Source: Hydra vulgaris (taxonomy: Eukaryota > Cnidaria > Hydrozoa > Anthoathecata > Hydridae). Taken from it: 64,000 nt of DNA. The position numbers were made by a program, and so were the translations under genes. The notes under the pieces were generated by a model. It saw only the letters and a program-made list of their open reading frames with translations. It made no database searches and was not told where the DNA came from. The stretch lies in NCBI RefSeq assembly GCF_038396675.1, contig NC_088926.1:2311001-2375000 (forward strand). The letters are read 5' to 3'. Below, in pieces: positions 8,390 to 40,661 of the stretch. Position 1 is the stretch's first letter; each line of letters starts with the position of its first letter.

Positions 8390-8645
8390 TGTAATTCCGG
8401 AAAGTTCTAGAACATTTAATGACGTTCGAGATTTAATAGCTTTAATAGATTTTACCAATAATAATTGTAAATATGTTTTTGCGGTGATTTATGACGGTGT
8501 TTTGAAGGATATTTTAGGAAAAGCATAGAGTATATATATTGAGGAAAAAATTGTAAATAGCAGAGTTTTAGTTAGGAGAAAAGATTATCGTTTATTGATT
8601 TAATTTATCTGTTTATTGATTTGTTGATTACGAGAAAAAACTACA
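8390..8645 (+). repeat. 5' LTR of copy 1
   Basis: Begins TGTAATTCCGG, ends AAAAAACTACA. Differs from its own 3' LTR at four sites (TGTAAT/TGTATT, TAGATTT/TAGTTTT, AAAAAATTG/AAAAATTTG, TTATCG/TTATTG). At all four it matches the 5' LTR of copy 2 instead. A TATATATATT sequence inside could be the promoter. Confidence 0.92.
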
Positions 8646-8657
8646 AGCTAACCGGGC

Positions 8658-9257
8658 ATGGAACCAAGTATGAGATTATTTGATATGTTTGAAACGTATG
8701 ATGGCACTTCGGATACTGCTGTTTGGATTCAACGAACGAAAGTGATTTCTGAAATTCAGAACTTAAAGCTTGAATTTCTTTTTCCGATTCTTCTCAGAGA
8801 AGCTGCTTATGCAGTGTACGATGCTTTAACCGCGGAAGATAAAAAAGATGTTGTGGAAGTCGAGCGTGTGTTATTAGCGGCGTTTTCTGTAGATGCCTAT
8901 ACTGCATATGAACTGTTTACAAAACGAAAACTATGTGACGGAGAAAAAGCCGACGTGTTTTTGGCTGATTTAAGACGATTAGCCTATCTTGCTAAATTAT
9001 CAGAGGAGTGTGTGCGTTTGGCGTTTGTTGTGGGTTTGCCAGAAGTTTTATCATCAAGATTTCGAGCCGTAATGGACCCGATTGATATAATGTTACCCAG
9101 AGTGAGAGCTGCTTTGAACTGTGCAAATGTGTTTGACAGTGACGCTGTTGGCGCTGTATCTAGACGCCATGCTACAAAAACCGCGAGGAATCTGCGCTAC
9201 CTCGCTCCTGAACAACGGTGGAATGAGCGCATTATCTTTTATTCGTTTAAAAGTTAA
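8658..9257 (+). CDS. gag-like protein of LTR copy 1
   Basis: 199 aa, helical and charged, beginning MEPSMRLFDMFETYDGTSDT, like the capsid region of gypsy-type Gag. No CCHC zinc knuckle is seen, so the nucleocapsid end may be lost. The ATG lies only 12 nt after the LTR, leaving no room for a usual leader; a TGG-starting primer site, if present, would overlap the gag start (TGGAACC at 8659). It overlaps the next frame by 137 nt in a different phase. Confidence 0.75.
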   Translation: MEPSMRLFDMFETYDGTSDTAVWIQRTKVISEIQNLKLEFLFPILLREAAYAVYDALTAEDKKDVVEVERVLLAAFSVDAYTAYELFTKRKLCDGEKADVFLADLRRLAYLAKLSEECVRLAFVVGLPEVLSSRFRAVMDPIDIMLPRVRAALNCANVFDSDAVGAVSRRHATKTARNLRYLAPEQRWNERIIFYSFKS

Positions 9258-10620
9258 CGGTATGGTTGCGACAGCTTTAGTGGACACAGGATGTTCGAAG
9301 ACGATTTTGAATAAAAAATTTCTGCCCAAAAGTCAATGTAGGTACTCAAACTCTCAAAAGGTAGTAACGTTTGAAGGAAAAGTTCATCAGTGCACTGGGT
9401 CAGCGGTCGTGATTCTTGAGGTTGATGGCATTAAAGCACGTGATGAAGTTATTTTAGTGGACTTCCAACCGTTTGGAGTTGATATGATGCTCGGAATGAG
9501 TTCCATTAAATTACTAGGAGGAGTATCCATTTCTCCTTTGGGAAAAGCGAAGTTCGGATTGAGTTACTGTGGAGCATCGGCTTTGAACAAGGACAAAGTT
9601 AAGAAAATCGAAATAAAAAAGAAAGATCACGAAGCAGTTTTTAATGGTGTTGAATGGAGAGTCAAATGGAAATGGAGAGATGGAGAAAGCTCCGACCGAT
9701 TGCGCAATAAAGTGGCACAGTACGGAATTCCACAACACGCTAGAGCAGACTATGAAAACGAACTACAGGATTGGATTGATCGGAAGTGGCTGTTAGAGTA
9801 TGACGAAAATGAACTGGGGCCGCCCAAAGGGCAGATTCCTTTAATGGCTGCCATTCAGAGAAACAAAGACCACAAAATCCGACCTGTTCTGGACTGGAGA
9901 GAAGCTAACGATTTCATTGAGACATACACGAGAGATGCAGATGTGTGTGTAGAAAAGCTTAGAGAATGGAGAAGAATGGGTAACAAACCAGCAATTATTG
10001 ATTTACGCAAGGCTCATCTTCAACTAAAAACTGATAAATCTCTTTGGCCCTTCCAAACAGTGGTGTTTCGAAATAAAAGGTATTGTTTGACACGACTTGG
10101 TTTCGGATTGAACGTTGCGCCAATGATCATGAAATCCGTTGTGAGTGCCGTCATTGATCAAGACGAATTAGTGAAGAGTGGAACGTCCGCTTATGTTGAC
10201 GACATTTACGTAGACGAAAGTGTGGTGAGTCTTGTTTATGTCAAGAGGCATTTTTTAAAATATGGTTTAGAAAGTAAAGAAGGTGAGCAGATTGGTAATG
10301 ATGGAGTTCGTGTGTTAGGATTGTGTGTGCGCAAGGTTGGTAACAAACTGATGTGGTCCAGAGGGAATCGAGTTGATGCTATCTCGCAAAAGTTAACCAG
10401 GAGAGTTGTGTTTTCAATTTGTGGACAGTTGGTAGGACATTTACCCGTGTGTGGTTGGCTGCGAGTGATTTGTAGTCTCTTGAAGAGGGAAGCTGTCAGT
10501 CTGACGAAGGGTTGGGACGATGAAATTTGTGATGAGAACGTTAAGTGGGTGCTTAAAAAAGTATTTGCTGAGGTGGAACGTTGCGAGCCTGCTTGTGGTG
10601 ATTGGGCATGTGTGTGGTGA
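9121..10620 (+). CDS. Protease and reverse transcriptase of LTR copy 1
   Basis: 499-aa frame. Aspartic protease active site ALVDTGCSKT at residues 52-61. Reverse transcriptase follows: PVLDWREAN (255-263), IDLRKAHLQL with the first catalytic Asp (D294), LTRLGFGLNVAP (323-334), and YVDDIYVDE (358-366) with the catalytic Asp pair. The frame ends at a TGA while RNase H continues in another frame, so a frameshift separates them. The same protein is predicted, residue for residue, from copy 2. Confidence 0.88.
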   Translation: MQMCLTVTLLALYLDAMLQKPRGICATSLLNNGGMSALSFIRLKVNGMVATALVDTGCSKTILNKKFLPKSQCRYSNSQKVVTFEGKVHQCTGSAVVILEVDGIKARDEVILVDFQPFGVDMMLGMSSIKLLGGVSISPLGKAKFGLSYCGASALNKDKVKKIEIKKKDHEAVFNGVEWRVKWKWRDGESSDRLRNKVAQYGIPQHARADYENELQDWIDRKWLLEYDENELGPPKGQIPLMAAIQRNKDHKIRPVLDWREANDFIETYTRDADVCVEKLREWRRMGNKPAIIDLRKAHLQLKTDKSLWPFQTVVFRNKRYCLTRLGFGLNVAPMIMKSVVSAVIDQDELVKSGTSAYVDDIYVDESVVSLVYVKRHFLKYGLESKEGEQIGNDGVRVLGLCVRKVGNKLMWSRGNRVDAISQKLTRRVVFSICGQLVGHLPVCGWLRVICSLLKREAVSLTKGWDDEICDENVKWVLKKVFAEVERCEPACGDWACVW

Positions 10621-11086
10621 TGAGGGAAAAGTGTGGGTTGATGCCAGTTCTTTAGCGATGGGTGCTCTTATTCAAGTTGGGGAAACTACTGTGGAGGATG
10701 CAACATGGCTGCGAAAAGAAACGTCTGATATTCATATAAACATGGCAGAATTAGACGCTGTGATACGTGGAATGAATATGGCTCTGATGTGGAAGCTGAA
10801 GAAAGTGACTGTTTTTACCGACTCCGTGACAGTATTCCACTGGGTTTCTGACGCCCTTACAGGAAAATCAAGGTTGAGATCAAAAGCGACGGGTGAAATG
10901 CTGATTCGAAGAAGACTGAGCGTGTTGCAACAGCTAATTGAAGAATACAATGTTAGCGTTGAGGTAAAACTTATTCCTTCTAAAGATAATTTGGCTGACG
11001 CATTAACAAGAGTTTGCAGCAGATGGCTCAACAAACTGACTGTGCCAGAGTGTCGGAATAGTTGTCGGAATAGTTGTATGGAATAG
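10520..11086 (+). CDS. RNase H of LTR copy 1
   Basis: Frame shifted relative to the reverse transcriptase. Catalytic acidic residues are visible: VWVDASSLAMGALIQ (D41), INMAELDAV (E77), VFTDSVTVFHWV (D101), SKDNLADALTR (D160). The real domain starts near residue 35, where the overlapping reverse transcriptase frame ends. Confidence 0.85.
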   Translation: MKFVMRTLSGCLKKYLLRWNVASLLVVIGHVCGDEGKVWVDASSLAMGALIQVGETTVEDATWLRKETSDIHINMAELDAVIRGMNMALMWKLKKVTVFTDSVTVFHWVSDALTGKSRLRSKATGEMLIRRRLSVLQQLIEEYNVSVEVKLIPSKDNLADALTRVCSRWLNKLTVPECRNSCRNSCME

Positions 11087-11099
11087 TCGTAGCTACGAA

Positions 11100-12185
11100 G
11101 GCTATTTCCGATATACACCTATACGATATACAGAATCTATTTCCGATATACACCAAAGAACTGGACATTTCGGAGTGAATCGAACGTTAAACTTTGTTCG
11201 TAAAGCAATTCCGACTGCTACTGAAAACGATGTTCGAAATGTGATAAAAAGTTGCGAACCATGTCAGTCAATAGATCCAGCGCCAATACGGTGGGAAAAA
11301 GGGAAAATGGATGTTGAAGGAAACTGGGAGAGATTGGCCATGGACATCACGCATTATGGCACTGACAAGTTTTTGAGTCTAATTGATTGCGGACCTTCAA
11401 AATACGCGTTGTGGCGACAATTATCAAGCTCATACGGAAGTCTTGCCATAGTCCGAATACTCCGTCTTATTTTTCGTGAACGTGGAGCACCGTCTGAAAT
11501 ATTGACTGACAATGAGCCGACATTTAAAACTAAAGAGATAAGGAGTTTCCTTGATAGTTGGGGAGCACAAATTAGATTTAGAGCCGCTTATTATCCTGAA
11601 GGAAATGGAATTGTAGAAAGAAACCAACGTACGATCAAGCGAATAGCAGAACGATCGAAAATGTCGATACCGGAAGCACTATATTGGTACAATGTCTCAG
11701 CCGACAAAAATGGTGCAAGTCCGATGGACAAAATATACAGTTATACCATTGGTGTGAAAGGATTGGGAAAAGAGAATCTTCCTGCACAAAATGTCACGAA
11801 CAAGAGGTTTTGAATCGGCGATAAAGTCTGGCTGAAACCACCAAATGCGAGGTGCTATACAAAGTGGCAACCAGCTACGATAACTCGGAATGCGTCGAAA
11901 CAAATCGTAGAAGTGAACGGCATTCCGCGTCATGTGAAACACGTTAGACCTCGAAATGATACTCAGTCCTGCATTATCCCTGATGTGGAAATAGAGATGA
12001 ATACTGAAACTGGTCTAGAGAACGCTAAAAATCAAGGAGAGCAAGTTAAAGATGTATTAGAGACGAACGAGGAAAATGTCGAAGCTGAAGATAGACCCCA
12101 AGAAATCGACATGCTTTTGCGACGGAGTGGTCGGGAACGGCGCATGCCTTCGAAATACTTTGATTGCTATTTGGATGATCCGTAA
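11100..12185 (+). pseudogene. Integrase of LTR copy 1, with in-frame stop
   Basis: HHCC zinc-binding N-terminus: HQRTGHFG near 11155 and KSCEPC at residues 25-30 of the frame starting at 11175. Catalytic core DD35E: AMDITHYG (D57), LTDNEPTF (D112), NGIVERNQ (E148), 35 residues between the last two. A TGA at 11811-11813 interrupts it; the same frame goes on with IGDKVWLKPPNAR (a gypsy-type C-terminal domain) to the stop at 12183-12185, just before the polypurine tract. Confidence 0.88.
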
Positions 12186-12190
12186 GGATC

Positions 12191-12199
12191 AAGGAGGAG
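12191..12199 (+). promoter_or_regulatory. Polypurine tract of copy 1
   Basis: AAGGAGGAG directly before the 3' LTR start TGTA; expected site for plus-strand priming. Confidence 0.8.
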
Positions 12200-12455
12200 T
12201 GTATTTCCGGAAAGTTCTAGAACATTTAATGACGTTCGAGATTTAATAGCTTTAATAGTTTTTACCAATAATAATTGTAAATATGTTTTTGCGGTGATTT
12301 ATGACGGTGTTTTGAAGGATATTTTAGGAAAAGCATAGAGTATATATATTGAGGAAAAATTTGTAAATAGCAGAGTTTTAGTTAGGAGAAAAGATTATTG
12401 TTTATTGATTTAATTTATCTGTTTATTGATTTGTTGATTACGAGAAAAAACTACA
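12200..12455 (+). repeat. 3' LTR of copy 1
   Basis: Begins TGTATTTCCGG, ends ACTACA, followed by ATTTAAAACTGG, LINE1 coding sequence. Matches the 3' LTR of copy 2 at the four sites that separate 5' from 3' LTRs; the two 3' LTRs differ at one site (CGAGATTT here, CGATATTT in copy 2). Confidence 0.92.
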
Positions 12456-13940
12456 ATTTAAAACTGGAGACACGGCATTGCTAACCAATTATAGACCTAT
12501 CTCAATTCTTCCAGTGTTTTCCAAGCTCCTGGAAAGAATAATGTACAACAAACTTTATAAATATTTAGCAGACAATAAAATTCTAAGTGAATGTTAATAC
12601 GGCTTTCAAATTAATCATTCTACGGAACACGCAACCTTAGACCTAATGGACAACATTAGCTCGTCATTTGATAAAGGAAAATTTGTATTGGGAGTTTTTA
12701 TCGATCTTACAAAAGCTTTCGATACTGTTAACCATAAAATTCTGCTCGAAAAAATGAGAAAATACGGTATAAAAAATCAAACTATTAAATGGTTCACTAA
12801 TTATTTAAATAACAGGCAACAATGTGTTATTATAGACGGTATCACTAATACGGAGTTATTAAAAATCAAATGCGGTGTCCCGCAGGGATCTTTTCTTGCA
12901 CCTTTATTATTCCTTATCTACATTAACGATCTTCCTAAAGCCTCTACAAATCTCATCTCGATTGTATAATGTTTGCAGATGATACCAATCTGTTCTATTC
13001 ATCTACCTCTATCAATGACCTCTTTGATAAAGTCAACTTTGAACTTCAAAATCTTAAAACATGGTTCAGTGCTAACAAGTTATCATTAAACGCGCAAAAA
13101 ACTAAATATATTTTATTTCACTCAAAGAAACAGAAGAACAAACTACCATCAATTCTACCGACACTAAGTATTGACTACAAAAAAATTGAAAGAACCCAAA
13201 TAATTAAATTTCTTGGTGTGATTATTGACGAAAATGTTTTATGGACAGCTCATATAAATGCCATCAATACTAAAATATCTAAAAGTATTGGTATACTTTT
13301 TAAAGCTAGACCATTTTTATCGCAAAAAAACCTAAAACTTCTTTACTTTTCCTTTATACATAGTTATCTCACATATGCCAACATAGCCTGGGGAAGCACA
13401 CACAAGACAAAATTAATATCTCTTTATCGACGACAAAAACATGCTTCTAGAATAATACATCATAAAAACAAACTGAACCACGCTAAACCCCTATTAAAAG
13501 AAATGAAAGCACTAAACATTTACCAAATTAATATCTATGCTAACATTTTGTTCATGCTTAAATACAAACTAGGATTAGTTCCAAACCGATTCACAGGAAA
13601 CTTCTTTCAATCTAATATCAACAAATTTAACACAAGAGCAACTGGTAACTTTATTGTACCCCTGAAAAAAAAAAAAAGTTCTCAATTTTCTATTTCTTAT
13701 CGTGGCCCATATTTATTCAACAAATTAATTCCGAATTATACCTCGATTTCTCTCCCAGGCAACATAACTTCTTTAAAGTCGAAACTCAAAAATCATATTC
13801 TTAATATGGATAATTACCTAGAAATGTTCTAGTTCTGATGGTAAATCAAAACTTACGCTCAAATTAAAATAATCAGCAATCAAATACATATGGAAAATGT
13901 AAATTTTTGTTCAACAAATAAAGCTAGTATTATTATTATA
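12456..13940 (+). pseudogene. LINE1 3' half: reverse transcriptase and C-terminus
   Basis: CR1/L2-type reverse transcriptase, plus strand, starting abruptly at the LTR edge with FKTGDT. Motifs: NYRPISILPVFSKLLERIM, VFIDLTKAFDTVNH, GVPQGSFLAPLLFLIYINDL, MFADDTNLFYSS (catalytic Asp pair, about 12980). Lesions: a TAA near 12597 and a frameshift near 12965. The C-terminal region has SFIHSYLTYANIAWGS. It ends in an ATT-type tail near 13930. The 5' half is at 43230-40662 on the minus strand; the break falls inside the peptide IPIF|KTGD, and both sides carry ATTTA. Confidence 0.9.
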
Positions 13941-14354
13941 AACCTCAACACTAACACAAAACATAGTTCAATTAAAAAGAAAAGAAAAAAAAGTTTGCAA
14001 TAATAACATGTAAAACATTTCTTTAATGAGAATCACATTGTTTATATGTGTGCTGTACGCAATACCTCAATGATTTCGATGATAAGACTAATCTCAGTCT
14101 TCTACGAGTTCCCTACAACAACAAAACCCTTCTTATCAAGTCATAGCATACCTAATTATTGCTTCCTATATTTAACGGTATTTTGTAAAATGTATTTTTT
14201 TTTTGTTTAGGAAGTACAGTTTCTTTATAATATTGCAGTGTAAAAAATTTGTAATTGATATGTAGTTGTGAAAATTTAAAGAAAAAAAAAAAGAAAATAT
14301 TCAGTAGTTTTTTATAGCATTTTCAAAAAAAAAAAAGTTATTTGGCGGACCCGT
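13941..14354. mobile_element. Terminal piece of the DD41D mariner
   Basis: Ends in the inverted repeat AAAAGTTATTTGGCGGACCCGT (14333-14354 region), matching the opposite end at 44490 (ACGGGTCCGCCATCTAAC), with TA next to both. The stretch between the LINE1 tail and this repeat has no recognisable gene and may include mariner 3' sequence or other debris. Confidence 0.65.
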
Positions 14355-15330
14355 TATAAGCACAAAAATTTCTAAAAACATGGGGATCCTATATAAATTA
14401 TGAATCTATCTCAATAAGAAAGTCTTAATCCAACTTTATCACTCATTTATACACAGTTATTTAAATTATGCCAATATTGCTTGGGGAAGTACAGAAAAAA
14501 GTAAGTTGCAACGTCTTTATCTCCGTCAGAAACGAGCAATCCGTATAATTAATTATGCAAATCGCTTTTCTCATTCGAAGCATTATTTTATTGAAATGAG
14601 AGTTCTGAATATATACGAGTTAAATGTATCTATTATTTTATGTTTTGTATATATGTTGATAAATAACTTATACCTTGCTGTCTTCAAAGATCTTTTCTCT
14701 TTTAAACCAATCAGTAAATATATTTTGAGAATTAATAACTTTTTAAATGAACCTTTTTGTCAAACAAACTTAAATCAATTTGGTATTACCTATCGAGCGC
14801 CACACTTTTGGAATAAAATTGTTTTGCCGAATTTTAACTTTGACGTACCTATTACTTTTTGCCTTTTTTTAAAAGAACTGAAAAATCTCATTCTTTCATT
14901 AGATAATATATTTACTTATTACTAGTAGTAAAATATATTTTAGTCTACTTTTTTTGTTGTTTATATACATGTTTACGTTTATAGAAGTTTATTCCTACTT
15001 ATTTTATTTATTGTTCTTATACTTTTTACTTTTTATTTTATATGTTGGTTTACTCCTGTATAAAATTCTGATGAGAAGATCCCCTTGATCTTTCTTCAGA
15101 CACAGATTATTTACCTTGCAATTTTGTAAAAGTTAATTTTTTTTTTATCTTATCTTTGTTAAATGCTTATTTAAGGTTCTGACGACGAAATCTTTGCGAT
15201 CTTCTTTCAGATACCTTGATTATATTTGTTATATTTTCTATCATTGTAAGTTTATATTACTATTTTTATTATTGGTTATTTAAAGATGTACAACGATTAA
15301 CAAATGTAAACCCAAAAAAAACAAAAAATA
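14355..15330 (+). pseudogene. LINE4 3' end: ORF2 C-terminus and 3' UTR
   Basis: Begins at the TA next to the mariner end. Encodes STKISKNMGILYK, SFIHSYLNYANIAWGSTEKS and YRAPHFWNKIV, the C-terminal region of LINE ORF2, ending at the TAG/TAA near 14925. The UTR has two similar imperfect stem-loops (15068-15099 and 15179-15210: CTGATGAGAAGATC...GATCTTTCTTCAG). The upstream half of LINE4 is at 47507-44493 on the minus strand, joined by reading WNRHIDYISTK across the TA. Confidence 0.85.
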
Positions 15331-15486
15331 GCTTTGTAGTGGGCGGGTAGCCTTTAGGCTATGTAGTACCTGTAAACTATATAGTGGGCTTTGTAGTAAT
15401 ATTTTCTAAAAAGAATAAAAAATAATTAAATCTATTTTAAAGCATCTATTTAAAACTCATTCTTCCTATATGGATTTTATGTACAA

Positions 15487-16112
<626 letters not shown>

Positions 16113-16260
16113 AGCTGCAGCGCAGTACTTAGCGCACTTGCCTTAGAAGCTGATCCCTGGTCCAACGCCACCTCTGGACAAGTTTTGTAACATTGGTAAG
16201 GAAGGAGGCGTTAATACTTTAAATAAGCACCTTTGAGAATCTCCTTTCAATAAAAAATCG
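16113..16260 (+). mobile_element. tRNA-derived SINE, diverged copy
   Basis: Head GCTGCAGCGCAGTACTTAGC (box A-like), box B-like CCTGGTCCAACGCC, then GGTAAGGAAGGAGGCGT, a body shared with the SINEs at 3716 and 44921 (there on the minus strand). Confidence 0.65.
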
Positions 16261-16734
16261 TGCTCAGAAATATGCGTAATTTAGAGTAAAGATTATCAAT
16301 ATGCTGAACACATAGTAGAGATTAACAATATGCTTAAAATAGGTTTGTTATTGTGTTTTTTTTTACCAAAATATGAACTTTAATATACTTATAAGCGGTA
16401 AGCTTTAAAAGGAAAATTTAATGTTAACTATCTTGTTTTTTGTTGGCAATGGTTGTGTCAGTCGATAAAAGGAATGTGTCAGCCGAATAGAGAACTTATG
16501 AATTCATGTAATTCATTTTGATAGTTTAACTTTTGTATACTTTTTTTATTTGACGTAGAATTTTCAGAAATAACAAAACAAATAAATTAGATTTATATAT
16601 ATCAGAACAACAAATACACGATGTAGAAGACATTTTTTTCTTAAAAAAAAATACGTTTTAAAGGTCATTTGTTTTGAAAAATTAAAATTAATACTTTTAA
16701 TTGAATCGTAATTAATACTTTTTAATTAAACAAC

Positions 16735-16925
16735 ATTAGTTTCTCCGCGCAGCAGCCTTGATCGGCAAGGTTCGTGTTTCGGAGTTAAAGAGTTGAGAGA
16801 GGGTTGCACCACGAATAACGACTAAAAAAAAAAAAAAAAAAAATATTAAAAAAAAAGAGTATCTTCCTCGACTATAGTGGCCCCCTCGGGCCTTGGGGAG
16901 GTGAATAATCTAAAAAAAAAAAAAA
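16735..16925 (+). mobile_element. SINE-like repeat family 2, copy A
   Basis: Begins TTTCTCCGCGCAGCAGCC, contains GGTTCGTGTTTCGGAGTT (box B-like) and GAGTTGAGAGAGGGTT, two A-rich tracts, and CCTCGACTATAGTGG...CTTGGGGAGGTGAAT. A second copy lies at 48935-49085. Dispersed copies with A-rich tails suggest a SINE; no transcription evidence. Confidence 0.7.
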
Positions 16926-17030
16926 AGCATAATAATGTATTTAAATAAAGATAATATATTTATGACTTTTATTTGGTTATTACTTTTATAAGAAAGAACT
17001 CTAAGTGAGATATCGTTTCTTAAAATGCAT

Positions 17031-17081
17031 TTTGTGTAAAATGTAATTGAAATTTTTTATTTCAATTACATTTTACACAAA
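17031..17081. repeat. Perfect hairpin, 22-bp arms, 7-nt loop
   Basis: Left arm 17031-17052 begins TTTGTGTAAAATGTAATTG; right arm 17060-17081 is its exact complement. Confidence 0.95.
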
Positions 17082-17149
17082 GTTCAAGAAAATTGTATTT
17101 ATTTGTTTTGTAAAATAGTAAAAAAAAAAACTTTTTAATGTTTTTGGGT

Positions 17150-17900
17150 TGTTCGCCAATTAATGTTGGGTTTTTCATATTTTTTTTAAGTGAATTTATT
17201 TATATTAACAAAAACATTATTTGTTCATATATAACCATTTTGTTGGATTAAGTTTTGCCATCTTTCGGTAAGTTGAAAAACTCAACGTTTGAAGAACCCT
17301 TGCTTTTTAGAAGCTAAAAACTGATTCAACTAATTTTTTAACATCCGGATTGGAAAATAAAGTTTTACCACTCAAATAGTTTTGAATGAAGCAAAACAAA
17401 TGATAATTTGATGGTGCTAAGTCAAGGCTATAAGGTGAATTCGGAATCAGTTCCTAATTGAGTTCTTTTAATTTTTGACGGGTTACCAAAGGGTTTTGCG
17501 ATGGGTTCAGAGCTATTTTTCTTGCTTTCTTTGTTCAATTTCGATAATTCAGTTTTGAATCAATAGTTTGGTTTCTTAAAAGCTGCTCAAAATAGGCTAT
17601 GTCTTTGTGATCACACAATTCCCAAAGCATAATTTTTTTTTGGGCATTATTGGCTTTGAATATTGGTTGCGGATGCTTGTTTTGCTTGGTCCATGATTGT
17701 TTTTGGACTACATTTTCGTAAACAATCCATTTTTCATCACCAGTTATAAATTTATTTAGAAATATGTTGTTTTGTTTACGATTCAGCGAAGAGTGACATA
17801 TGTTAATGCGTTTAGTAAGGTGGATTTCTTTTGATTCTCGAGCAACTCAAACATCCAGTGTGTTTGCATAACCATGCTGTTGTAAGTGCAAGTAAAGAAT
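17150..17900 (-). pseudogene. Mariner (DD34D-type) transposase remnant
   Basis: Minus strand: FITGDEKWIVYENVV (first catalytic Asp intact), KQNKHPQPIFKANNAQKKIM, then YSLDLAPSNYHLFCFIQN, where the family has APSD, so the last catalytic Asp has become Asn. The middle with the second Asp is decayed, there are several frameshifts, and the N-terminal part is missing beyond LLENQKKSTLLNALT. Confidence 0.85.
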
Positions 17901-18063
17901 TTAATCCAATATGTTTTGCTTCTTTGCATATTAAACATCTTCAAATTGCAAACGTTGCAAACGTAGGACAACCAATATGTGGTGCATCATTAAAATTTCC
18001 AAAACGAAAAAAAGAAAACCAACCTCAAACTGGCGTTTATAAGGCAGTCCTTTCCTTTCAGAA
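17848..18063 (+). other. Open frame, possible exon fragment
   Basis: Reads VCLHNHAVVSASKEF, NPICFASLHIKHLQIANVAN, GQPICGAS and then a Lys-rich tail to a stop at 18065-18067. Spacing of the Cys around NPICFA and GQPICG is faintly like a Kazal-type inhibitor domain, but most expected Cys are absent. It could be a decayed exon of the membrane protein gene just downstream. Not recognised with confidence. Confidence 0.2.
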
Positions 18064-18317
18064 ATAAATAAATAAATTATGCCGATAATGCTCTCTTTGA
18101 ATGTTTTCAACTTAAATTTTAACCAACTTGTTTTTACTCAGTATTTTTTTAAGTTTTTCCAAAGTTTTTATTTTTTTAAACTTGAAACGTCTTTTTTAAT
18201 AAGCTTTTTATCGATTTGCAAAAATTGAAAAAATTATTATTTTTTAACATTTACTTTACGTCATTTTACACTTCAAAACTTTTTACAAGTTATTTATTTA
18301 CAAGTTATCTTATTTAG

Positions 18318-18841: not shown

Positions 18842-18896
18842 CCTCGATGGAATAATCATTTTTATACTTAGTTTTAATGTTTAAAAAATTTATTGG

Positions 18897-18902
18897 AATA
18901 AA
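18897..18902 (+). terminator. Poly(A) signal AATAAA
   Basis: Canonical hexamer in the right place after the last exon of the membrane protein gene. Confidence 0.5.
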
Positions 18903-19360: not shown

Positions 19361-19362
19361 TA

Positions 19363-19455: not shown

Positions 19456-19536
19456 CTAAGAAACGAACACGTGCTCTTCAAGCAAACGGACGCGTTTTTT
19501 TTTTGAAGCGCTTTAACTGAAGAAAAAAATTTTCTA

Positions 19537-20441: not shown

Positions 20442-20460
20442 CCCAGTGAAAAAGCGCACA

Positions 20461-29990: not shown

Positions 29991-30017
29991 TATATTGATA
30001 TATATATTTTTTTTATA

Positions 30018-31301: not shown

Positions 31302-31344
31302 TATTTTATAAATGTATAAAAAAAAGTCTATATAGAAAATATAA

Positions 31345-31440
31345 ACATGTTTACATATACAAACATAACAGCAGCATTATCACAAAGCTATGCTAGCAGT
31401 TTGTAATTCACTAGGCCAAGCATATGTTTTTATGTTACAA
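31345..31440. repeat. Third copy of the ~90-bp repeat unit
   Basis: Shares AAGCTATGCTAGCAGTTTGT and AAGCATATGTTTTTA with 29850-29900. Confidence 0.75.
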
Positions 31441-31687
31441 AAAGAGAAAACAAAGTATTGTTTACTTTTTGCAAATTCATAAAACTGAAAATAAAGCAAC
31501 AAATTATTTTTACTGAAGATAATTGTTGCTTTGTTGCATAATAGTATAAAGTAAATAAAGCATTATAAACGGTTAAAAGCTTTCTAAATAGGTACAAGTT
31601 TATCCAATTTCGAGCTTTTGATGTTTGTTTCTAAAAAGAAATTTTGCTTAAGATAAATACAGGTTTTCTTCATACAGGAAGCATAAA

Positions 31688-31732
31688 AAATTTGCGAGAA
31701 GTTGTCTTGAAAAGACAACTTCTCGCAAATTT
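31688..31732. repeat. Perfect hairpin, 21-bp arms, 3-nt loop
   Basis: AAATTTGCGAGAAGTTGTCT(T) at 31688-31708 and its exact complement at 31712-31732. Confidence 0.95.
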
Positions 31733-32267
31733 CATTTAATAAAGCTACATCATTTTGCTCTAAAGCCATTCGTACATAATAACAAATGTCAGACATCGTA
31801 AATAGAGCACTTTAAGAACTTTACACATGCTAACTGCAAAACCCTTACGCAATTTATCGGCTTATTTAACTATTTTTTTCAAGTTGCACAATTAATTTCC
31901 AAACTTTTTATTTAGATCCAGATCAAATTTGGCGGATTGACCACTTAGTTCTATACTACTTTAGGCATAATTTATTTTTCATTAGTTAAAGTGATAAAAA
32001 TACACACCTCGTACCGAGATTAGATAAGGCAAAACTTATTTTGCCTAATGCATGAAAAAGCCATTTGCCTGATCATAGTTTGTAACACTCTCGCACTTAT
32101 CGTAGTAAAGTTATCGTCAGCAACGCCAAAACCATTAATAATAAAAAATCCCCGATGGAACTTTAAAATGTAAAGTAAATTATTACATATTAATTTACAT
32201 CTTAATAATAATATAATATTTCTCCATAGGCTGTTACCTAATATGCCGAACCCTAGATCCGCCCCTG

Positions 32268-32795
32268 ATAATACTTGAAATTAATTAACAAATTCAAAAA
32301 TAACACTAAGAGCATTTAGGAAATAATGAAGGAAATTACAGGAAAACAAAAATCATGCTTTGATTTTTGGCCATAAATGATTAAAATTGATGACACTAGT
32401 ATATTTGAACCAAAAGCTACATCACATGAATTTAACAAATTTTTTACTAAAATAGGTCCTAAACTATCAAATAAGATTCATACCACCAGAATTTTTTTTA
32501 ATAACTTCTTATACCCTTGGATAAATGCATATGCTCTGATGAGCTCTTCTCTGATCTATCAATTGAAGAAGTTGAAAAGGCGTTGACTAGTGTGAAATGT
32601 GGACAAGACTATATAAATGGAAACATGACTATAGATTGCTTTTAGCAACTAAAAGATGTTCTTTTCAAAGTTTTCAATGTCTTAATTAAACAAGGAGTTT
32701 TACCAGAAGAAATAAAAATTTCCAAAGTTACACCTAATTATAAAGAGGGTGACCGATCCCAAATAACTAATTATCGCCCATCCCTGTGCTCTCTG
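32268..32795 (+). pseudogene. LINE5 reverse transcriptase start
   Basis: Plus strand: LKLINKFKNNTKSI, EIMKEITGKQKSCFDF, SHEFNKFFTKIGPKLSNKIH and near 32760 NYRPS, the N-terminal part of a LINE reverse transcriptase, with stops. It ends where a hAT terminal repeat (CAGGGCCTTCGAGAACG) begins at 32796; GCTCTCTG (32788-32795) is a candidate target duplication but its partner is not in the expected place. Confidence 0.75.
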
Positions 32796-33797
32796 CAGGG
32801 CCTTCGAGAACGTCAATGGCGCCCGAGTCAAAAATGAAGAGTGGCGCCGTTAAATCAAAGCAAGAAAATAAAAGTTTAAAAGTTTAAAACTTTTAAAGTT
32901 TTGTGAACGCAGCAATTATTTATTTCTGATACAGTACATTGGATTTTTGCGTTACTATTAATTCTCTGGATTGAGAAACGGTTCCTAAATCAAAGCTGTC
33001 ATATGAATCAAAACATTAGTTTTAAAACTATTAAAAAAAAAAATCAACAAAATCTTCAAGAAAGGTAAATAAGGCGTTTAAAAATGAACTTTTTGAGCTA
33101 TTCTGGCCGTCCAAATATTGGTGACATTGTCGTAGCTCGTCGTAGTTTTATCCAAATCTTCTTTAATCAAAATGGTCAAACGGTGAGAGTTTTTTACAAT
33201 TTTTAGTTTACTAAAGGATTGTTCACCCTCAGGAACTGACTTAGGAATAGTATTGAAAATCCGGGGCGCGATGCAAATGCATAGAAAAAGGCGCTCAAGC
33301 TTCTTCTAAGAGAATCGATCAAGTTGCTGCATTAGATTTTCATGCTTGAAAACTGTTTTGCGGGCATTGTTAAAACGACAAACTTCTTCAATGAGAACCT
33401 TTTTATTCATATCTCTCGGATAAAACCATGTAAGTTCTTATGCTTTATTTTAAACGGAAAGATCATCATTATCCAACAAGACGTATGAAATTATATTGCC
33501 AACTATCCTTCTCGTCTCAAATCTGAATTAAATCGCTGGATCAGACCAACCTTTAAAAACGTTCACTTTAAATTCTTTTGTTTTGCTGTGGTGGAAATGG
33601 GCTGTTGATACCTCGTCATGAAAGTGCTTTAGTTTAAGCTTTCTTTTAGTAATGAGTTCAGTTTCGAATCCTAGCGGTCCAACTACAACTAAAGCCTCTT
33701 AGAAAATTTGCAACCAAGAGCCCCTAATCAGTTCGAGATCTTCCAGCTGCTGTTCAATCAATGATAATGGCTGCAGATTGTAGAAGACAACTAACTT
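32796..33797 (-). pseudogene. hAT/ZMYM-type transposase, downstream part, and terminal repeat
   Basis: Minus strand from 33797: LIEQQLEDLELIRGSW, GFETELITKRKLKLKHFHDE, EFKVNVFKGWSDPA, then the C-terminal hAT dimerisation motif PEGEQSFSKLKIVKNSHR and TTTSYDNVTNIW near 33230-33110. The element end CAGGGCC is at 32796. The upstream part (TRWSSR) is at 5142-5530; the two are collinear after undoing the inversion, with LINE2 inserted between. Stops and frameshifts make it a pseudogene. Confidence 0.75.
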
Positions 33798-35465
33798 TTT
33801 AAATTTTTTATTTTTTTATTTTTTTTTTACTCCTTCATTATTATTATTGTTTGCCGTATATTAAAATTTACAATGAAATAAATCGTGTTAATAAATAAGA
33901 GAGCTGGAGCAAGCAGAAGGCATAAACTGTCTAATCATTGACCCCATTTACATTGAAAAAGTCGTCAGTTTATATACAAAAATGAAAAGTAGCTAAGTAC
34001 ATAATAAGAATTTTACACACGTTAGTTACAATATAAATGTAAATATAATATAAATATTAGTGTTGAAATATAACGCAATATATCAATTTAACATTAACAA
34101 CAATATAAAAGTATTAAAAAATTAAATAAAAATAAAACTGCAACAAAAGTAGTATTTATTTTAAAAGAGATATTTTAAATCAAAGTCATTTTGTAATTAG
34201 AGAATCTTAAGAATAAGCGATGTTTTGAACATTTATTTTTTTTTGTAATAAATTTTGAAAAGTGTTTCCATAGAAACGGTCCACGGTATTAGACTTGGTA
34301 AGAACTTAGTTTTAAATTAGTTTTTGGTTCAATAAAGTTGTTAATTGAAAATTTAGTAGGATACTTGTGCGAGATTTCACTAAAGTAAGACCGAAATACA
34401 ATAGAAGAAAACCCATGTTTTATTTTAAACATGAATTATTTAAACATAGAACTTGGTGTATATTAAGTTTATAGATACTTAGGGCACCAAGCTTCCTTAA
34501 AAGAGGTTCGCAATGAAAAGTTCTGTGTGCACCAAATACAATCCTGCATGCGTGTTTTTGCTTACTATAAAGTTTTTTTAATTTACTATAATTAGTACTA
34601 TCCCATACAATATTACAGTAAGAGATAAAACTATGAATAAATGAAAAGTATATTTTTTTCAAGGAAGTAGTGTTAAGATATGGTTTAGTTTTATATAATA
34701 TTGAAATATTTATTGAGATTTTATTTTCTATGCATTTTATATGTGGTTTCCATGACAAATTTTCTTCTAGTAGTACTCCTAAAAAATTAACGATTAGTTT
34801 CCTTTTAATAAATGTTTTATTGAATAAAAGATTAGGTAATTTTAGAGGAACATCATCACCTTTACTACGTTTGGAGAATAAAGAATAAAATAAATTTAGT
34901 TTTTTCTACATTTAACGAAAGCCTATCACTTGTAAACCACTCGTTTATTTTTAATAGTTCTTCATTAAATATATTAAAGAGAACTTTTATGTTTTGTTGG
35001 AATAAAAAAGATTGGAGTCGTCTGCAAACAATATAACATTTAAATATTTGATGCTAAGTACAAATCATTTATATACAATAAAAATAATAATGGTCCTAAG
35101 ATTGAACCTTGGGGCACACCACATGTAATGTGTTTTTTCAATTTTTTTATAAATATTACATTGTGACCTGTTCGCAAGGTAATCTTCAAACCAAAGTATG
35201 TTTTTATTTCTTACTCCATAGAGTTCCAGTTTTTTTATAAGTATTTTATGGTTAACAGTGTCAAAGGTTTTTGACAGGTCAATAAAAACTCCAAAGGTAA
35301 AATAGTCATTATTGAATGATACATGATTAATCAGTTCAGTTACCGCATGGTAGTTGAATTATCTTTTTTAAACCCAAATTGTTTACTGTACAGCAAACTA
35401 TTTAACATCGAATAGTTATAAAGTCTGTTGTACATAATTCGTTCCAATAATTATGAGAAGCAAGG
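33798..35465 (-). pseudogene. LINE2 3' segment: reverse transcriptase to tail
   Basis: Minus strand starts at CCTTG (35465-35461) and encodes LLERIMYNRLYNY, VFIDLSKTFDTVNHKIL, a CGVPQGSILGPLLFLLYIND region, FADDSNLFYSNK, and the C-terminal SFIHSFISYCNIVWDSTNYS, ending in ATACGGCAAA and an A/T-rich tail near 33798. The same 3' end type occurs at 62020 (LINE7), so both are one subfamily. It lies head to head with the LINE2 5' segment at 35466, as in a twin-primed insertion. Confidence 0.85.
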
Positions 35466-36595
35466 GTATCTTTGACACGGAGGTAAACGGACATGTTTCT
35501 GCGGCGTGGTTGTTTTGAAAATTTAAAAAAAAAAATTTGTTTTTTTAAATTGTTTGCAATTATTTAAATAAACAAATATACATAAATATATATTTTTAAA
35601 TAAAGACATATTGGTTAATTATGGCTATTACAATGGATCAAGTAAAAAAAAACAATACAAAAAATGTTTAAAGAATTTAACAACGAAATAGACGAAATGA
35701 TGAAGCAACATGAAAAAAAACGTGTTAAACATATTAAGCGCCAACACGAAAATTATTTACGATAGATTAGATAAAGTATATCTAAAGGTTAATCATCATG
35801 CAAAACAAATAAAGATAATAGAAAAAGACGTAGAAGAAATCAAAGGAAGCTTAAATTTTCACGAACACCTTTTTAAAGAAAAAATTAAGACAGCTATTAC
35901 TTCTCAGGAAAAAAAATAAACATCTCACATCGAAAAGCAAAATCATAATTCCGACTATTTTAAAATAAAAGTAAACTAAGAGAGATGGAGAATAGATCTC
36001 GCAGAAATAATTTAAGGGTCAACGGGTTAAAAGAAAACGAAGGTGAAACGTGGATTGACAGCGAATTAATAGTCTGTAAAGTTTTTAAAGAGCATTTGGG
36101 GTTAACAAATATTAGGATTGAAAGAGCTCATAGAACTGGTCAGAGAGATTTAAACAAACCAAGAACAATTGTATTAAAACTAATAGATTATAAAGATAAA
36201 GTTGAAATTCTAAAGAAAACATATCAATTAAAAGGTAAAAATATTTATATTAATGAAGATTTTTGTGCCAAAACTGTCACCAATTAGGAAAGCTCTACGG
36301 GATCAGATGAAAGTTGAACGAGCGGCTGGAAAATATGCATTCATCTCTTACGATAAGTAGATCATTCGAACAAAAGTAAAATATTATTTTCGTAACATAT
36401 TTATTTACTACAATTTTATTTTACTTTCTATATAATACTTTGTTTAATTAATTATTTTAAATTTTACTTATAAAAATGGAGGTCAAATTTTAATTTTATT
36501 TTAATAATGAGAATGCTAGTGATGATAACTATTTTAATAGAAAAAATTTAGAAAGCGAGAATTATACAATTTCTGAATCTACTCAACGTCTCTGT
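35466..36595 (+). pseudogene. LINE2 5' segment: 5' UTR, ORF1, ORF2 start
   Basis: ORF1 in two pieces (35620-35920, 35985-36287): coiled coil, then MENRSRRNNLRVNGLKENEG, ERAHRTGQRDLNKPRTIVLK and YINEDFCAKT, typical of L1-like ORF1 proteins. ORF2 starts near 36500 (ENASDDNYFNRKNLESENYT) and stops at the LTR edge after STQRLC. Continues at 8389-8337 on the minus strand. Confidence 0.85.
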
Positions 36596-36851
36596 TGTAG
36601 TTTTTTCTCGTAATCAACAAATCAATAAACAGATAAATTAAATCAATAAACAATAATCTTTTCTCCTAACTAAAACTCTGCTATTTACAAATTTTTCCTC
36701 AATATATATACTCTATGCTTTTCCTAAAATATCCTTCAAAACACCGTCATAAATCACCGCAAAAACATATTTACAATTATTATTGGTAAAAACTATTAAA
36801 GCTATTAAATATCGAACGTCATTAAATGTTCTAGAACTTTCCGGAAATACA
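36596..36851 (-). repeat. 3' LTR of copy 2
   Basis: Same four 3'-type bases as the 3' LTR of copy 1; private difference CGATATTT. The polypurine tract lies at 36852-36860. Confidence 0.92.
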
Positions 36852-36865
36852 CTCCTCCTTGATCC

Positions 36866-37951
36866 TTACGGATCATCCAAATAGCAATCAAAGTATTTCG
36901 AAGGCATGCGCCGTTCCCGACCACTCCGTCGCAAAAGCATGTCGATTTCTTGGGGTCTATCTTCAGCTTCGACATTTTCCTCGTTCGTCTCTAATACATC
37001 TTTAACTTGCTCTCCTTGATTTTTAGCGTTCTCTAGACCAGTTTCAGTATTCATCTCTATTTCCACATCAGGGATAATGCAGGACTGAGTATCATTTCGA
37101 GGTCTAACGTGTTTCACATGACGCGGAATGCCGTTCACTTCTACGATTTGTTTCGACGCATTCCGAGTTATCGTAGCTGGTTGCCACTTTGTATAGCACC
37201 TCGCATTTGGTGGTTTCAGCCAGACTTTATCGCCGATTCAAAACCTCTTGTTCGTGACATTTTGTGCAGGAAGATTCTCTTTTCCCAATCCTTTCACACC
37301 AATGGTATAACTGTATATTTTGTCCATCGGACTTGCACCATTTTTGTCGGCTGAGACATTGTACCAATATAGTGCTTCCGGTATCGACATTTTCGATCGT
37401 TCTGCTATTCGCTTGATCGTACGTTGGTTTCTTTCTACAATTCCATTTCCTTCAGGATAATAAGCGGCTCTAAATCTAATTTGTGCTCCCCAACTATCAA
37501 GGAAACTCCTTATCTCTTTAGTTTTAAATGTCGGCTCATTGTCAGTCAATATTTCAGACGGTGCTCCACGTTCACGAAAAATAAGACGGAGTATTCGGAC
37601 TATGGCAAGACTTCCGTATGAGCTTGATAATTGTCGCCACAACGCGTATTTTGAAGGTCCGCAATCAATTAGACTCAAAAACTTGTCAGTGCCATAATGC
37701 GTGATGTCCATGGCCAATCTCTCCCAGTTTCCTTCAACATCCATTTTCCCTTTTTCCCACCGTATTGGCGCTGGATCTATTGACTGACATGGTTCGCAAC
37801 TTTTTATCACATTTCGAACATCGTTTTCAGTAGCAGTCGGAATTGCTTTACGAACAAAGTTTAACGTTCGATTCACTCCGAAATGTCCAGTTCTTTGGTG
37901 TATATCGGAAATAGATTCTGTATATCGTATAGGTGTATATCGGAAATAGCC
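36866..37951 (-). pseudogene. Integrase of LTR copy 2, with in-frame stop
   Basis: Same zinc-binding HHCC, DD35E core and premature TGA (at 37240-37238) as copy 1. The C-terminal part reads on to 36866. Confidence 0.88.
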
Positions 37952-37964
37952 TTCGTAGCTACGA

Positions 37965-38531
37965 CTATTCCATACAACTATTCCGACAACTATTCCGACA
38001 CTCTGGCACAGTCAGTTTGTTGAGCCATCTGCTGCAAACTCTTGTTAATGCGTCAGCCAAATTATCTTTAGAAGGAATAAGTTTTACCTCAACGCTAACA
38101 TTGTATTCTTCAATTAGCTGTTGCAACACGCTCAGTCTTCTTCGAATCAGCATTTCACCCGTCGCTTTTGATCTCAACCTTGATTTTCCTGTAAGGGCGT
38201 CAGAAACCCAGTGGAATACTGTCACGGAGTCGGTAAAAACAGTCACTTTCTTCAGCTTCCACATCAGAGCCATATTCATTCCACGTATCACAGCGTCTAA
38301 TTCTGCCATGTTTATATGAATATCAGACGTTTCTTTTCGCAGCCATGTTGCATCCTCCACAGTAGTTTCCCCAACTTGAATAAGAGCACCCATCGCTAAA
38401 GAACTGGCATCAACCCACACTTTTCCCTCATCACCACACACATGCCCAATCACCACAAGCAGGCTCGCAACGTTCCACCTCAGCAAATACTTTTTTAAGC
38501 ACCCACTTAACGTTCTCATCACAAATTTCAT
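37965..38531 (-). CDS. RNase H of LTR copy 2
   Basis: Residue-identical to the copy 1 frame, with the same four acidic catalytic residues and the same frame offset from reverse transcriptase. Confidence 0.85.
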   Translation of the reverse strand: MKFVMRTLSGCLKKYLLRWNVASLLVVIGHVCGDEGKVWVDASSLAMGALIQVGETTVEDATWLRKETSDIHINMAELDAVIRGMNMALMWKLKKVTVFTDSVTVFHWVSDALTGKSRLRSKATGEMLIRRRLSVLQQLIEEYNVSVEVKLIPSKDNLADALTRVCSRWLNKLTVPECRNSCRNSCME

Positions 38532-39930
38532 CGTCCCAACCCTTCGTCAGACTGACAGCTTCCCTCTTCAAGAGACTACAAATCACTCGCAGCCAACCAC
38601 ACACGGGTAAATGTCCTACCAACTGTCCACAAATTGAAAACACAACTCTCCTGGTTAACTTTTGCGAGATAGCATCAACTCGATTCCCTCTGGACCACAT
38701 CAGTTTGTTACCAACCTTGCGCACACACAATCCTAACACACGAACTCCATCATTACCAATCTGCTCACCTTCTTTACTTTCTAAACCATATTTTAAAAAA
38801 TGCCTCTTGACATAAACAAGACTCACCACACTTTCGTCTACGTAAATGTCGTCAACATAAGCGGACGTTCCACTCTTCACTAATTCGTCTTGATCAATGA
38901 CGGCACTCACAACGGATTTCATGATCATTGGCGCAACGTTCAATCCGAAACCAAGTCGTGTCAAACAATACCTTTTATTTCGAAACACCACTGTTTGGAA
39001 GGGCCAAAGAGATTTATCAGTTTTTAGTTGAAGATGAGCCTTGCGTAAATCAATAATTGCTGGTTTGTTACCCATTCTTCTCCATTCTCTAAGCTTTTCT
39101 ACACACACATCTGCATCTCTCGTGTATGTCTCAATGAAATCGTTAGCTTCTCTCCAGTCCAGAACAGGTCGGATTTTGTGGTCTTTGTTTCTCTGAATGG
39201 CAGCCATTAAAGGAATCTGCCCTTTGGGCGGCCCCAGTTCATTTTCGTCATACTCTAACAGCCACTTCCGATCAATCCAATCCTGTAGTTCGTTTTCATA
39301 GTCTGCTCTAGCGTGTTGTGGAATTCCGTACTGTGCCACTTTATTGCGCAATCGGTCGGAGCTTTCTCCATCTCTCCATTTCCATTTGACTCTCCATTCA
39401 ACACCATTAAAAACTGCTTCGTGATCTTTCTTTTTTATTTCGATTTTCTTAACTTTGTCCTTGTTCAAAGCCGATGCTCCACAGTAACTCAATCCGAACT
39501 TCGCTTTTCCCAAAGGAGAAATGGATACTCCTCCTAGTAATTTAATGGAACTCATTCCGAGCATCATATCAACTCCAAACGGTTGGAAGTCCACTAAAAT
39601 AACTTCATCACGTGCTTTAATGCCATCAACCTCAAGAATCACGACCGCTGACCCAGTGCACTGATGAACTTTTCCTTCAAACGTTACTACCTTTTGAGAG
39701 TTTGAGTACCTACATTGACTTTTGGGCAGAAATTTTTTATTCAAAATCGTCTTCGAACATCCTGTGTCCACTAAAGCTGTCGCAACCATACCGTTAACTT
39801 TTAAACGAATAAAAGATAATGCGCTCATTCCACCGTTGTTCAGGAGCGAGGTAGCGCAGATTCCTCGCGGTTTTTGTAGCATGGCGTCTAGATACAGCGC
39901 CAACAGCGTCACTGTCAAACACATTTGCAC
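38431..39930 (-). CDS. Protease and reverse transcriptase of LTR copy 2
   Basis: 499 aa, residue-identical to copy 1: ALVDTGCSKT protease site and YVDDIYVDE reverse transcriptase site, same terminal stop. Confidence 0.88.
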   Translation of the reverse strand: MQMCLTVTLLALYLDAMLQKPRGICATSLLNNGGMSALSFIRLKVNGMVATALVDTGCSKTILNKKFLPKSQCRYSNSQKVVTFEGKVHQCTGSAVVILEVDGIKARDEVILVDFQPFGVDMMLGMSSIKLLGGVSISPLGKAKFGLSYCGASALNKDKVKKIEIKKKDHEAVFNGVEWRVKWKWRDGESSDRLRNKVAQYGIPQHARADYENELQDWIDRKWLLEYDENELGPPKGQIPLMAAIQRNKDHKIRPVLDWREANDFIETYTRDADVCVEKLREWRRMGNKPAIIDLRKAHLQLKTDKSLWPFQTVVFRNKRYCLTRLGFGLNVAPMIMKSVVSAVIDQDELVKSGTSAYVDDIYVDESVVSLVYVKRHFLKYGLESKEGEQIGNDGVRVLGLCVRKVGNKLMWSRGNRVDAISQKLTRRVVFSICGQLVGHLPVCGWLRVICSLLKREAVSLTKGWDDEICDENVKWVLKKVFAEVERCEPACGDWACVW

Positions 39931-40393
39931 AGTTCAAAGCAGCTCTCACTCTGGGTAACATTATATCAATCGGGTCCATTACGGCTCGAAATCTTGATGA
40001 TAAAACTTCTGGCAAACCCACAACAAACGCCAAACGCACACACTCCTCTGATAATTTAGCAAGATAGGCTAATCGTCTTAAATCAGCCAAAAACACGTCG
40101 GCTTTTTCTCCGTCACATAGTTTTCGTTTTGTAAACAGTTCATATGCAGTATAGGCATCTACAGAAAACGCCGCTAATAACACACGCTCGACTTCCACAA
40201 CATCTTTTTTATCTTCCGCGGTTAAAGCATCGTACACTGCATAAGCAGCTTCTCTGAGAAGAATCGGAAAAAGAAATTCAAGCTTTAAGTTCTGAATTTC
40301 AGAAATCACTTTCGTTCGTTGAATCCAAACAGCAGTATCCGAAGTGCCATCATACGTTTCAAACATATCAAATAATCTCATACTTGGTTCCAT
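39794..40393 (-). CDS. gag-like protein of LTR copy 2
   Basis: 199 aa, residue-identical to copy 1, again starting 12 nt inside the LTR and lacking a visible zinc knuckle. Confidence 0.75.
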   Translation of the reverse strand: MEPSMRLFDMFETYDGTSDTAVWIQRTKVISEIQNLKLEFLFPILLREAAYAVYDALTAEDKKDVVEVERVLLAAFSVDAYTAYELFTKRKLCDGEKADVFLADLRRLAYLAKLSEECVRLAFVVGLPEVLSSRFRAVMDPIDIMLPRVRAALNCANVFDSDAVGAVSRRHATKTARNLRYLAPEQRWNERIIFYSFKS

Positions 40394-40405
40394 GCCCGGT
40401 TAGCT

Positions 40406-40661
40406 TGTAGTTTTTTCTCGTAATCAACAAATCAATAAACAGATAAATTAAATCAATAAACGATAATCTTTTCTCCTAACTAAAACTCTGCTATTTACAA
40501 TTTTTTCCTCAATATATATACTCTATGCTTTTCCTAAAATATCCTTCAAAACACCGTCATAAATCACCGCAAAAACATATTTACAATTATTATTGGTAAA
40601 ATCTATTAAAGCTATTAAATCTCGAACGTCATTAAATGTTCTAGAACTTTCTGGTATTACA
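40406..40661 (-). repeat. 5' LTR of copy 2
   Basis: Begins (element strand) TGTAATACCAG; differs from the copy 1 5' LTR only at two sites within the first ten bases, and shares its four 5'-type bases. Confidence 0.92.

What the first reader, a model, noticed from the sequence alone, without database searches (positions are those of the whole stretch)
8390..40661. 24-kb inversion between two inverted LTR retrotransposons, shown by cut-and-restored LINEs and exchanged target duplications
Seen: neither LTR copy has matching flanks, but flanks match crosswise. Copy 1 right flank ATTTAAAACTGG and copy 2 upstream flank ...CCTATATTTA restore LINE1 as PIF-KTGD in frame with a 5-bp ATTTA duplication. 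Copy 1 left flank ...TTACAG and copy 2 downstream flank ACAGAGACG restore LINE2 ORF2 (TQRLC-KNKNNFSILN) with 4-bp ACAG. The same flip also rejoins LINE4 and its mariner at a TA (14354/44490), and a hAT transposase (5530/33797). Four independent joins need one flip of 12456-36595. Known: ectopic recombination between inverted repeats produces exactly this. Inference: crossover somewhere in the 4,066-bp elements.
Basis: partly seen in the sequence, partly recalled or inferred. Interest (0 to 1): 0.93.

Follow-up and report, generated by a model that had tools for sequence, protein, structure and literature searches.

The report
Inversion between two inverted retrotransposon copies
A 24-kb stretch of an animal chromosome has been turned around by recombination between two copies of a jumping element lying in opposite orientation, and one copy has overwritten nearly all of the other; the process is well known, but this example can be read unusually clearly from one sequence.

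Summary
Two 4,066-bp LTR elements (8390-12455 +, 36596-40661 -) lie inverted, 24,140 bp apart, and differ at 3 bases. Of 25 copies with both ends, 23 have matching 5-bp target duplications; the two exceptions are these, and theirs match crosswise, ATTTA (5 bp) and ACAG (4 bp). Fetched relatives from the same genome read through the crosswise joins: LINE1 10/10, LINE2 9/10, LINE4 9/10, hAT 8/8; 8/8 mariner relatives carry the 3' end that the flip restores. One inversion of 12456-36595 explains all.

New: both copies carry the same four 5'-versus-3' LTR differences and 35 substitutions not seen in 23 others. New insertions have identical LTRs, so one copy's history was copied onto the other. Best reading: recent ectopic recombination with crossover plus gene conversion of about 3.7 kb or more; the crossover cannot be located.

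The genome fits the published Hydra vulgaris AEP assembly (inferred). Assembly error is not excluded and would also explain the shared changes. A clean new case of a known process (compare Galileo in Drosophila).

The parts
8390..12455 (+). LTR retrotransposon copy 1, 4,066 bp (LTRs 8390-8645 and 12200-12455); ORFs with protease, RT/RNase H, integrase matches
   Evidence: Pfam (RVP, RVT_1 below cut-off, RVT_3/RNase_H, Integrase_H2C2, rve)
36596..40661 (-). LTR retrotransposon copy 2, 4,066 bp, 3 mismatches to copy 1 (5' LTR 40406-40661, 3' LTR 36596-36851)
12456..36595 (.). inverted segment, 24,140 bp, relative to the ancestral order
   Evidence: crosswise target duplications and restored joins
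8386..8389 (+). ACAG, left half of target duplication 2 (pairs with 36592-36595)
36592..36595 (-). ACAG on the - strand, right half of target duplication 2; 4 bp where the family has 5
12456..12460 (+). ATTTA, right half of target duplication 1 (pairs with 40662-40666)
40662..40666 (-). ATTTA on the - strand, left half of target duplication 1
40662..43253 (-). LINE1, 5' part (endonuclease, start of RT); host of copy 2 in the ancestral order; outer limit set by the mariner
12456..14297 (+). LINE1, 3' part (RT and 3' end)
35704..36595 (+). LINE2, 5' part with ORF1 (start of element approximate)
8337..8389 (-). LINE2, start of ORF2 up to the mariner-like insert
5530..6494 (-). LINE2, endonuclease/RT part; joined in relative L086 to 35465
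33797..35465 (-). LINE2, 3' part to its A-rich end (outer limit from the hAT border); inverted relative to the 5' part in the ancestral order (twin-priming type)
6495..8336 (+). mariner-like (DDE_3) element inserted in LINE2, with 22-bp repeats at both ends
33545..33795 (-). hAT-like sequence, right part
43254..44490 (-). mariner element with transposase (363-aa ORF) and 5' terminal repeat
14298..14354 (+). mariner 3' end with terminal repeat; same orientation as the repeat at 44463-44490 today, inverted after the flip
44491..44848 (-). LINE4, 5' part
14355..14954 (+). LINE4, 3' part

Best explanation
Two copies of one LTR retrotransposon family inserted independently and in opposite orientation 24 kb apart, one into LINE1 (5-bp ATTTA duplication) and one into LINE2 (ACAG). 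Much later the two copies paired as inverted repeats and recombined. A crossover turned the 24,140 bp between them around and exchanged the outer halves of the two target duplications. In the same or a linked event gene conversion copied one element over the other across about 3.75 kb or more, so both now carry one mutational history. Shown: the crosswise duplications, the restored joins, the shared mutations. Inferred: the crossover as mechanism, one continuous conversion tract, that conversion and crossover were one event, and that the assembly is right.
For: Crosswise target duplications, with 23 of 23 other copies with both ends normal. Joins restored: LINE1 10/10, LINE2 9/10, LINE4 9/10, hAT 8/8 relatives, mariner 3' repeat 8/8. 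LINE2's two halves make one 5'-inverted insertion only in the flipped order: in relative L086 5530 joins 35465 directly with 5 bp shared. Copy-to-copy identity 99.93% against 98.2% for the next best pair among 25 copies. Four LTR-asymmetric differences shared by both copies; none shared with any of 20 other copies with full LTRs, and at most 1 in any of 190 other pairs. 35 shared substitutions absent from 23 others, from element position 38 to 3848; each other copy alone carries 22-116. Against the 23 others the three differences are all changes in copy 2, two of them in the outermost 10 bp, as expected if the conversion tract stopped short of the end (chance 6.7e-5 for at least two of three within 10 bp of an end).
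Against: No reads, second haplotype or related species could be examined. The ACAG duplication is 4 bp where the family makes 5, which needs one lost base. The copies show no chimera pattern of the kind that proved the Galileo crossover, because the copies are homogenised; so the crossover is inferred from the flanks alone. Some of the 35 shared substitutions may have been in the source element before insertion (positions 38 and 3848 are the same LTR site in both LTRs). Collapse and wrong traversal of a near-identical inverted repeat by an assembler could also give identical copies, shared changes and swapped flanks.
Confidence: 0.82

Rival explanations
1. Assembly artefact: the true chromosome has the ancestral order, and a near-identical inverted repeat was collapsed and walked the wrong way, which also made the copies look identical.
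For: One graph error would explain the swapped flanks, the 99.93% identity and the shared private changes together. Two of three differences lie within 10 bp of unique flank. The published AEP assembly, which this seems to be, used Hi-C scaffolding, Nanopore gap filling and Illumina polishing (passages of PMC12220107).
Against: The same paper reports contigs from PacBio HiFi reads (23.6 Gb of reads for 1.75 Gb of contigs); reads of usual HiFi length (recalled; the passages give none) span 4 kb and separate copies that are 2% apart. No N in the window, though the paper's gaps were filled, so this does not rule out a filled gap.
Confidence: 0.12
2. Aberrant (hybrid-element) transposition: only one element was inserted; ends from two sister copies were used together and inserted at a second site, giving an inversion flanked by two identical copies with exchanged duplications.
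For: Predicts identical copies including shared LTR asymmetry in one step, with no conversion; this is the alternative discussed for Galileo (PMC2775673). The second duplication is 4 bp, not 5.
Against: Described for cut-and-paste transposons; an LTR element integrates from cDNA, which would give identical LTRs (general knowledge). Clustering of two differences at the 5' edge fits a conversion boundary better.
Confidence: 0.03
3. Two independent insertions plus a later inversion by end joining, with the elements identical because of a separate earlier conversion.
For: Not excluded by order of events; conversion and crossover need not coincide.
Against: Both breakpoints would have to fall exactly between element and flank or inside both elements at matching positions; homologous exchange does this without coincidence.
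Confidence: 0.02

Closest known systems
Inversion 2z3 of Drosophila buzzatii, made by ectopic recombination between Galileo transposons (PMC2775673; passages and part 1 of section 10 read)
   Same: Two homologous elements in opposite orientation at the two breakpoints, target duplications exchanged between them, terminal repeats more alike between copies than within each copy
   Different: Galileo is a P-superfamily DNA transposon; there the crossover was mapped to 141 bp by chimeric structure and non-inverted chromosomes were sequenced. Here an LTR element, 24 kb, copies homogenised, no non-inverted chromosome seen
Gene conversion among LTR retrotransposon sequences (PMC7251063, abstract and outline read)
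   Same: Conversion disturbs LTR-divergence dating
   Different: By its abstract that work treats converted regions in LTR pairs of plant elements; here whole elements at two sites
Twin priming / 5' inversion of LINE insertions (recalled; listing only)
   Same: LINE2 in the restored order has an antisense 5' part and a sense 3' part with 5 bp shared at the join
   Different: Best described for human L1 (recalled); the clade of this LINE was not tested

Membership tests
Inversion by ectopic recombination between transposable elements | Two homologous elements in opposite orientation at both breakpoints | tested here: met
Inversion by ectopic recombination between transposable elements | Target duplications exchanged between the two elements | tested here: met
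   ATTTA 5 bp, ACAG 4 bp (family rule 5)
Inversion by ectopic recombination between transposable elements | Uninverted flanks rejoin into sequence known elsewhere | tested here: met
Inversion by ectopic recombination between transposable elements | Both elements chimeric between two parental copies | tested here: inconclusive
   copies homogenised, 3 differences, no parental copies available
Inversion by ectopic recombination between transposable elements | Non-inverted chromosomes exist or existed with the two insertions | not testable with these tools
   no second haplotype, strain or relative held
LTR retrotransposon | LTRs starting TG, ending CA, and 5-bp target duplications | tested here: met
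   256-bp LTRs; 23 of 23 other copies with both ends have the duplication; one of them (L033) begins TT
LTR retrotransposon, Ty3-like domain order | protease - RT - RNase H - integrase | tested here: met
   Pfam order; RT match below Pfam's cut-off, superfamily not decided

The most novel reading that the evidence does not exclude
The inversion arose in one step from a single element: integrase, or a transposase-like activity, acted on the chromosomal ends of a resident LTR element and its sister copy and inserted them as a hybrid into LINE2. That would explain the identical copies, the shared LTR asymmetry and the odd 4-bp duplication without gene conversion, and would be a kind of LTR-element transposition not known to me.
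Probability: 0.03. Interest if true: 0.85.

Novelty: new member of a known kind. Interest (0 to 1): 0.36.

Why it matters
It is a small inversion whose mechanism and relative age can be read from one sequence, because nested transposons act as markers for the old order. It also shows that two elements at different sites can share LTR divergence by conversion, so the LTR clock dates at most one of them. Near-perfect 4-kb inverted arms 24 kb apart make a testable site for repeated flipping in clonally kept animals.

Tried and rejected
Independent retrotransposition as the whole explanation of two near-identical copies: rejected, because both share four LTR-asymmetric differences.

Placing the crossover: not possible; only three sites differ, all changed in copy 2.

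The shared deletion as strictly private: weakened. Both copies lack 157 alignment columns at element position 795 that at least 18 of 23 others fill, but this stretch varies in length among the others.

Finding an alternative haplotype or species: no eukaryote collection is offered by the tools; I searched only the window's own genome. Species is inferred from size, chromosome number and composition against PMC12220107 (passages read), not tested by sequence.

Literature: searches for transposon-borne inversions with exchanged duplications, LTR conversion, twin priming, and Hydra assemblies and inversions; no title in the listings, which were capped, reports this locus. 'Inversion' occurs 0 times in the main text of PMC12220107.

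Rows dropped: of 31 other family copies fetched from the top of a capped list, 8 lacked an end and were left out of the end, LTR and private-change comparisons (L025, L029, L030, L031, L032, L034, L036, L039). Three more (L010, L013, L022) with broken 5' LTRs were left out of the LTR-asymmetry count: with them in, L010 and L022 gave a shared count of 21 and L022 shared 2 with copy 1, from letters past the break of the 5' LTR.

Full report
What is there. The window is G000:C7:2311001-2375000 of a 911.5-Mb genome in 15 contigs, 30% GC, no N. Size and number fit the AEP haplotype of Hydra vulgaris, reported as 912 Mb in 15 chromosomes (PMC12220107, passages read); this identification is inferred. 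Two LTR elements of 4,066 bp lie at 8390-12455 (+) and 36596-40661 (-) and differ at three positions, 7, 10 and 3851 of the element. Their ORFs match aspartyl protease, RVT_1 (below Pfam's cut-off), RVT_3/RNase H, Integrase_H2C2 and rve in that order (copy 1 scanned).

Flanks. Copy 1 is flanked by TACAG and ATTTA, copy 2 (on its own strand) by ATTTA and ACAGA. Of 25 family copies with both ends, 23 have identical 5-bp duplications, and the two exceptions are these. The copy-2 left and copy-1 right flanks share ATTTA; the copy-1 left and copy-2 right flanks share ACAG, one base short of the family rule. Among 600 ordered pairs of different copies, 5 match crosswise over 5 bp and 9 over 4 bp, this pair counted in, so both matches in one neighbouring inverted pair are not expected by chance, and the host sequences settle it.

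Joins. I asked whether relatives elsewhere in the genome read through each crosswise join, picking them from the best matches of capped lists (39 others each for LINE1, LINE2, hAT and LINE4). LINE1: 10 of 10 fetched align through with no gap near the join, with a single ATTTA and 95-97% identity; eight cover the whole 395 bp compared, two end 30 and 89 bp past the join. Joined to its present neighbour, the same left flank aligns only over its own 100 bp in all 10. LINE2: 9 of 10 run 36595 -> 8389-8337 and then jump to about 6490, which also delimits a mariner-like insert at 6495-8336; L058 has one extra base at the join, and L057 is itself rearranged. The same flank joined to its present neighbour aligns over its own 100-101 bp only in all 10. 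LINE4: 9 of 10 run 44848-44491 then 14355 with a 2-bp overlap, as the TA duplication of a mariner would give; L079 shows only the second part. Mariner: the ends near 44490 and 14354 carry the same terminal repeat in the same direction today, and become an inverted pair after the flip; 8 of 8 relatives carry the 3' repeat about 55 bp past the 43254 equivalent, the joining row being visible for 6 of 8 because the output was cut.

One more sign. LINE2's RT half (6494-5530) and its 3' half (35465-33797) are one element: in relative L086 they join directly at 5530|35465 with 5 bp shared, and in L087 nearly so (5556 and 35468, 11 bases apart) (two relatives fetched). Today both halves lie on the same strand in the wrong order. 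In the flipped order the 5' half is antisense and the 3' half sense, ending A-rich at the hAT border: the usual shape of a 5'-inverted (twin-primed) LINE insertion (label recalled). So the restored order makes sense of this element too.

The copies share one history. New LTR insertions start with identical LTRs (general knowledge). Copy 1 has four LTR differences (positions 5, 60, 161, 200), and copy 2 has exactly the same four plus three of its own. None of copy 1's four is shared as an asymmetric difference with any of 20 other copies with full LTRs, and no other pair of 190 shares more than one. The pair also shares 35 substitutions absent from 23 others, spread from element position 38 to 3848; each other copy alone carries 22 to 116. 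Identity is 99.93%, the next best pair 98.2%. So one lineage's changes sit in both sites: one copy was overwritten by the other, or the sequence was doubled by the assembly. The recipient could have been a full copy or a solo LTR; the data do not say.

Relative age. 35 shared changes in 4,066 bp (0.86%) against 3 differences between the copies (0.07%), all changes in copy 2 by comparison with the others, put the copying late, at a few per cent of the age of the older insertion, if rates are equal. The 0.86% is an upper figure, because some of these changes may have been in the source element (38 and 3848 are one LTR site in both LTRs). Copy 1's LTR divergence of 4 in 256 (1.6% between LTRs, about 0.8% per branch) agrees with it. 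Two of the three differences lie in the outermost 10 bp (chance 6.7e-5), which suggests that the tract ended just inside the 5' edge. If there was one tract, it runs at least from position 60 to 3815, the outermost asymmetric changes shared by the pair and absent from the others.

Mechanism. Ectopic recombination between inverted repeats gives an inversion with exchanged duplications, and conversion alongside a crossover homogenises the arms. The Galileo study of Drosophila buzzatii uses the same signs, exchanged duplications and repeats more alike between copies than within them, and notes that a hybrid-element insertion would instead give identical copies (PMC2775673). Here the copies are nearly identical, so that alternative must be named; but it belongs to cut-and-paste elements, and conversion explains the same data with known steps.

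Artefact. The apparent source assembly used HiFi contigs, Omni-C scaffolding with 3D-DNA, Nanopore gap filling and Illumina polishing. A collapsed and wrongly walked inverted repeat would explain the swapped flanks and the shared changes together. HiFi reads should span 4 kb (length recalled), so I put an assembly flip at about 12%. Without reads or the 105 haplotype this cannot be closed.

Verdict. As a kind it is known; as an example it is unusually complete. Interest 0.36.

Noticed in passing
5530-6494, 8337-8389, 33797-36595: LINE2 is one 5'-inverted (twin-priming type) insertion inside a hAT-like element once the flip is undone; relative L086 joins 5530 to 35465 with 5 bp shared
   Followed up: yes
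24371-25018 and 26010-26662: An inverted repeat of about 650 bp at 95.4% identity, about 1 kb apart, inside the inverted segment, with (TA)n at the inner ends and matching 90-92 aa ORFs
   Followed up: no
6508-6676 and 7981-8339: 22-bp tandem repeats in opposite orientation at both ends of the mariner-like element with a DDE_3 ORF
   Followed up: no
element position 795 (window 9184 and 39867): The LTR family varies in length at this point; both window copies lack about 155 bp that at least 18 of 23 others have
   Followed up: partly
15488, 21218, 24934, 26010, 50260, 53570: Several near-identical simple-repeat arrays of about 80-110 bp, which read as (TA)n, in the window
   Followed up: no
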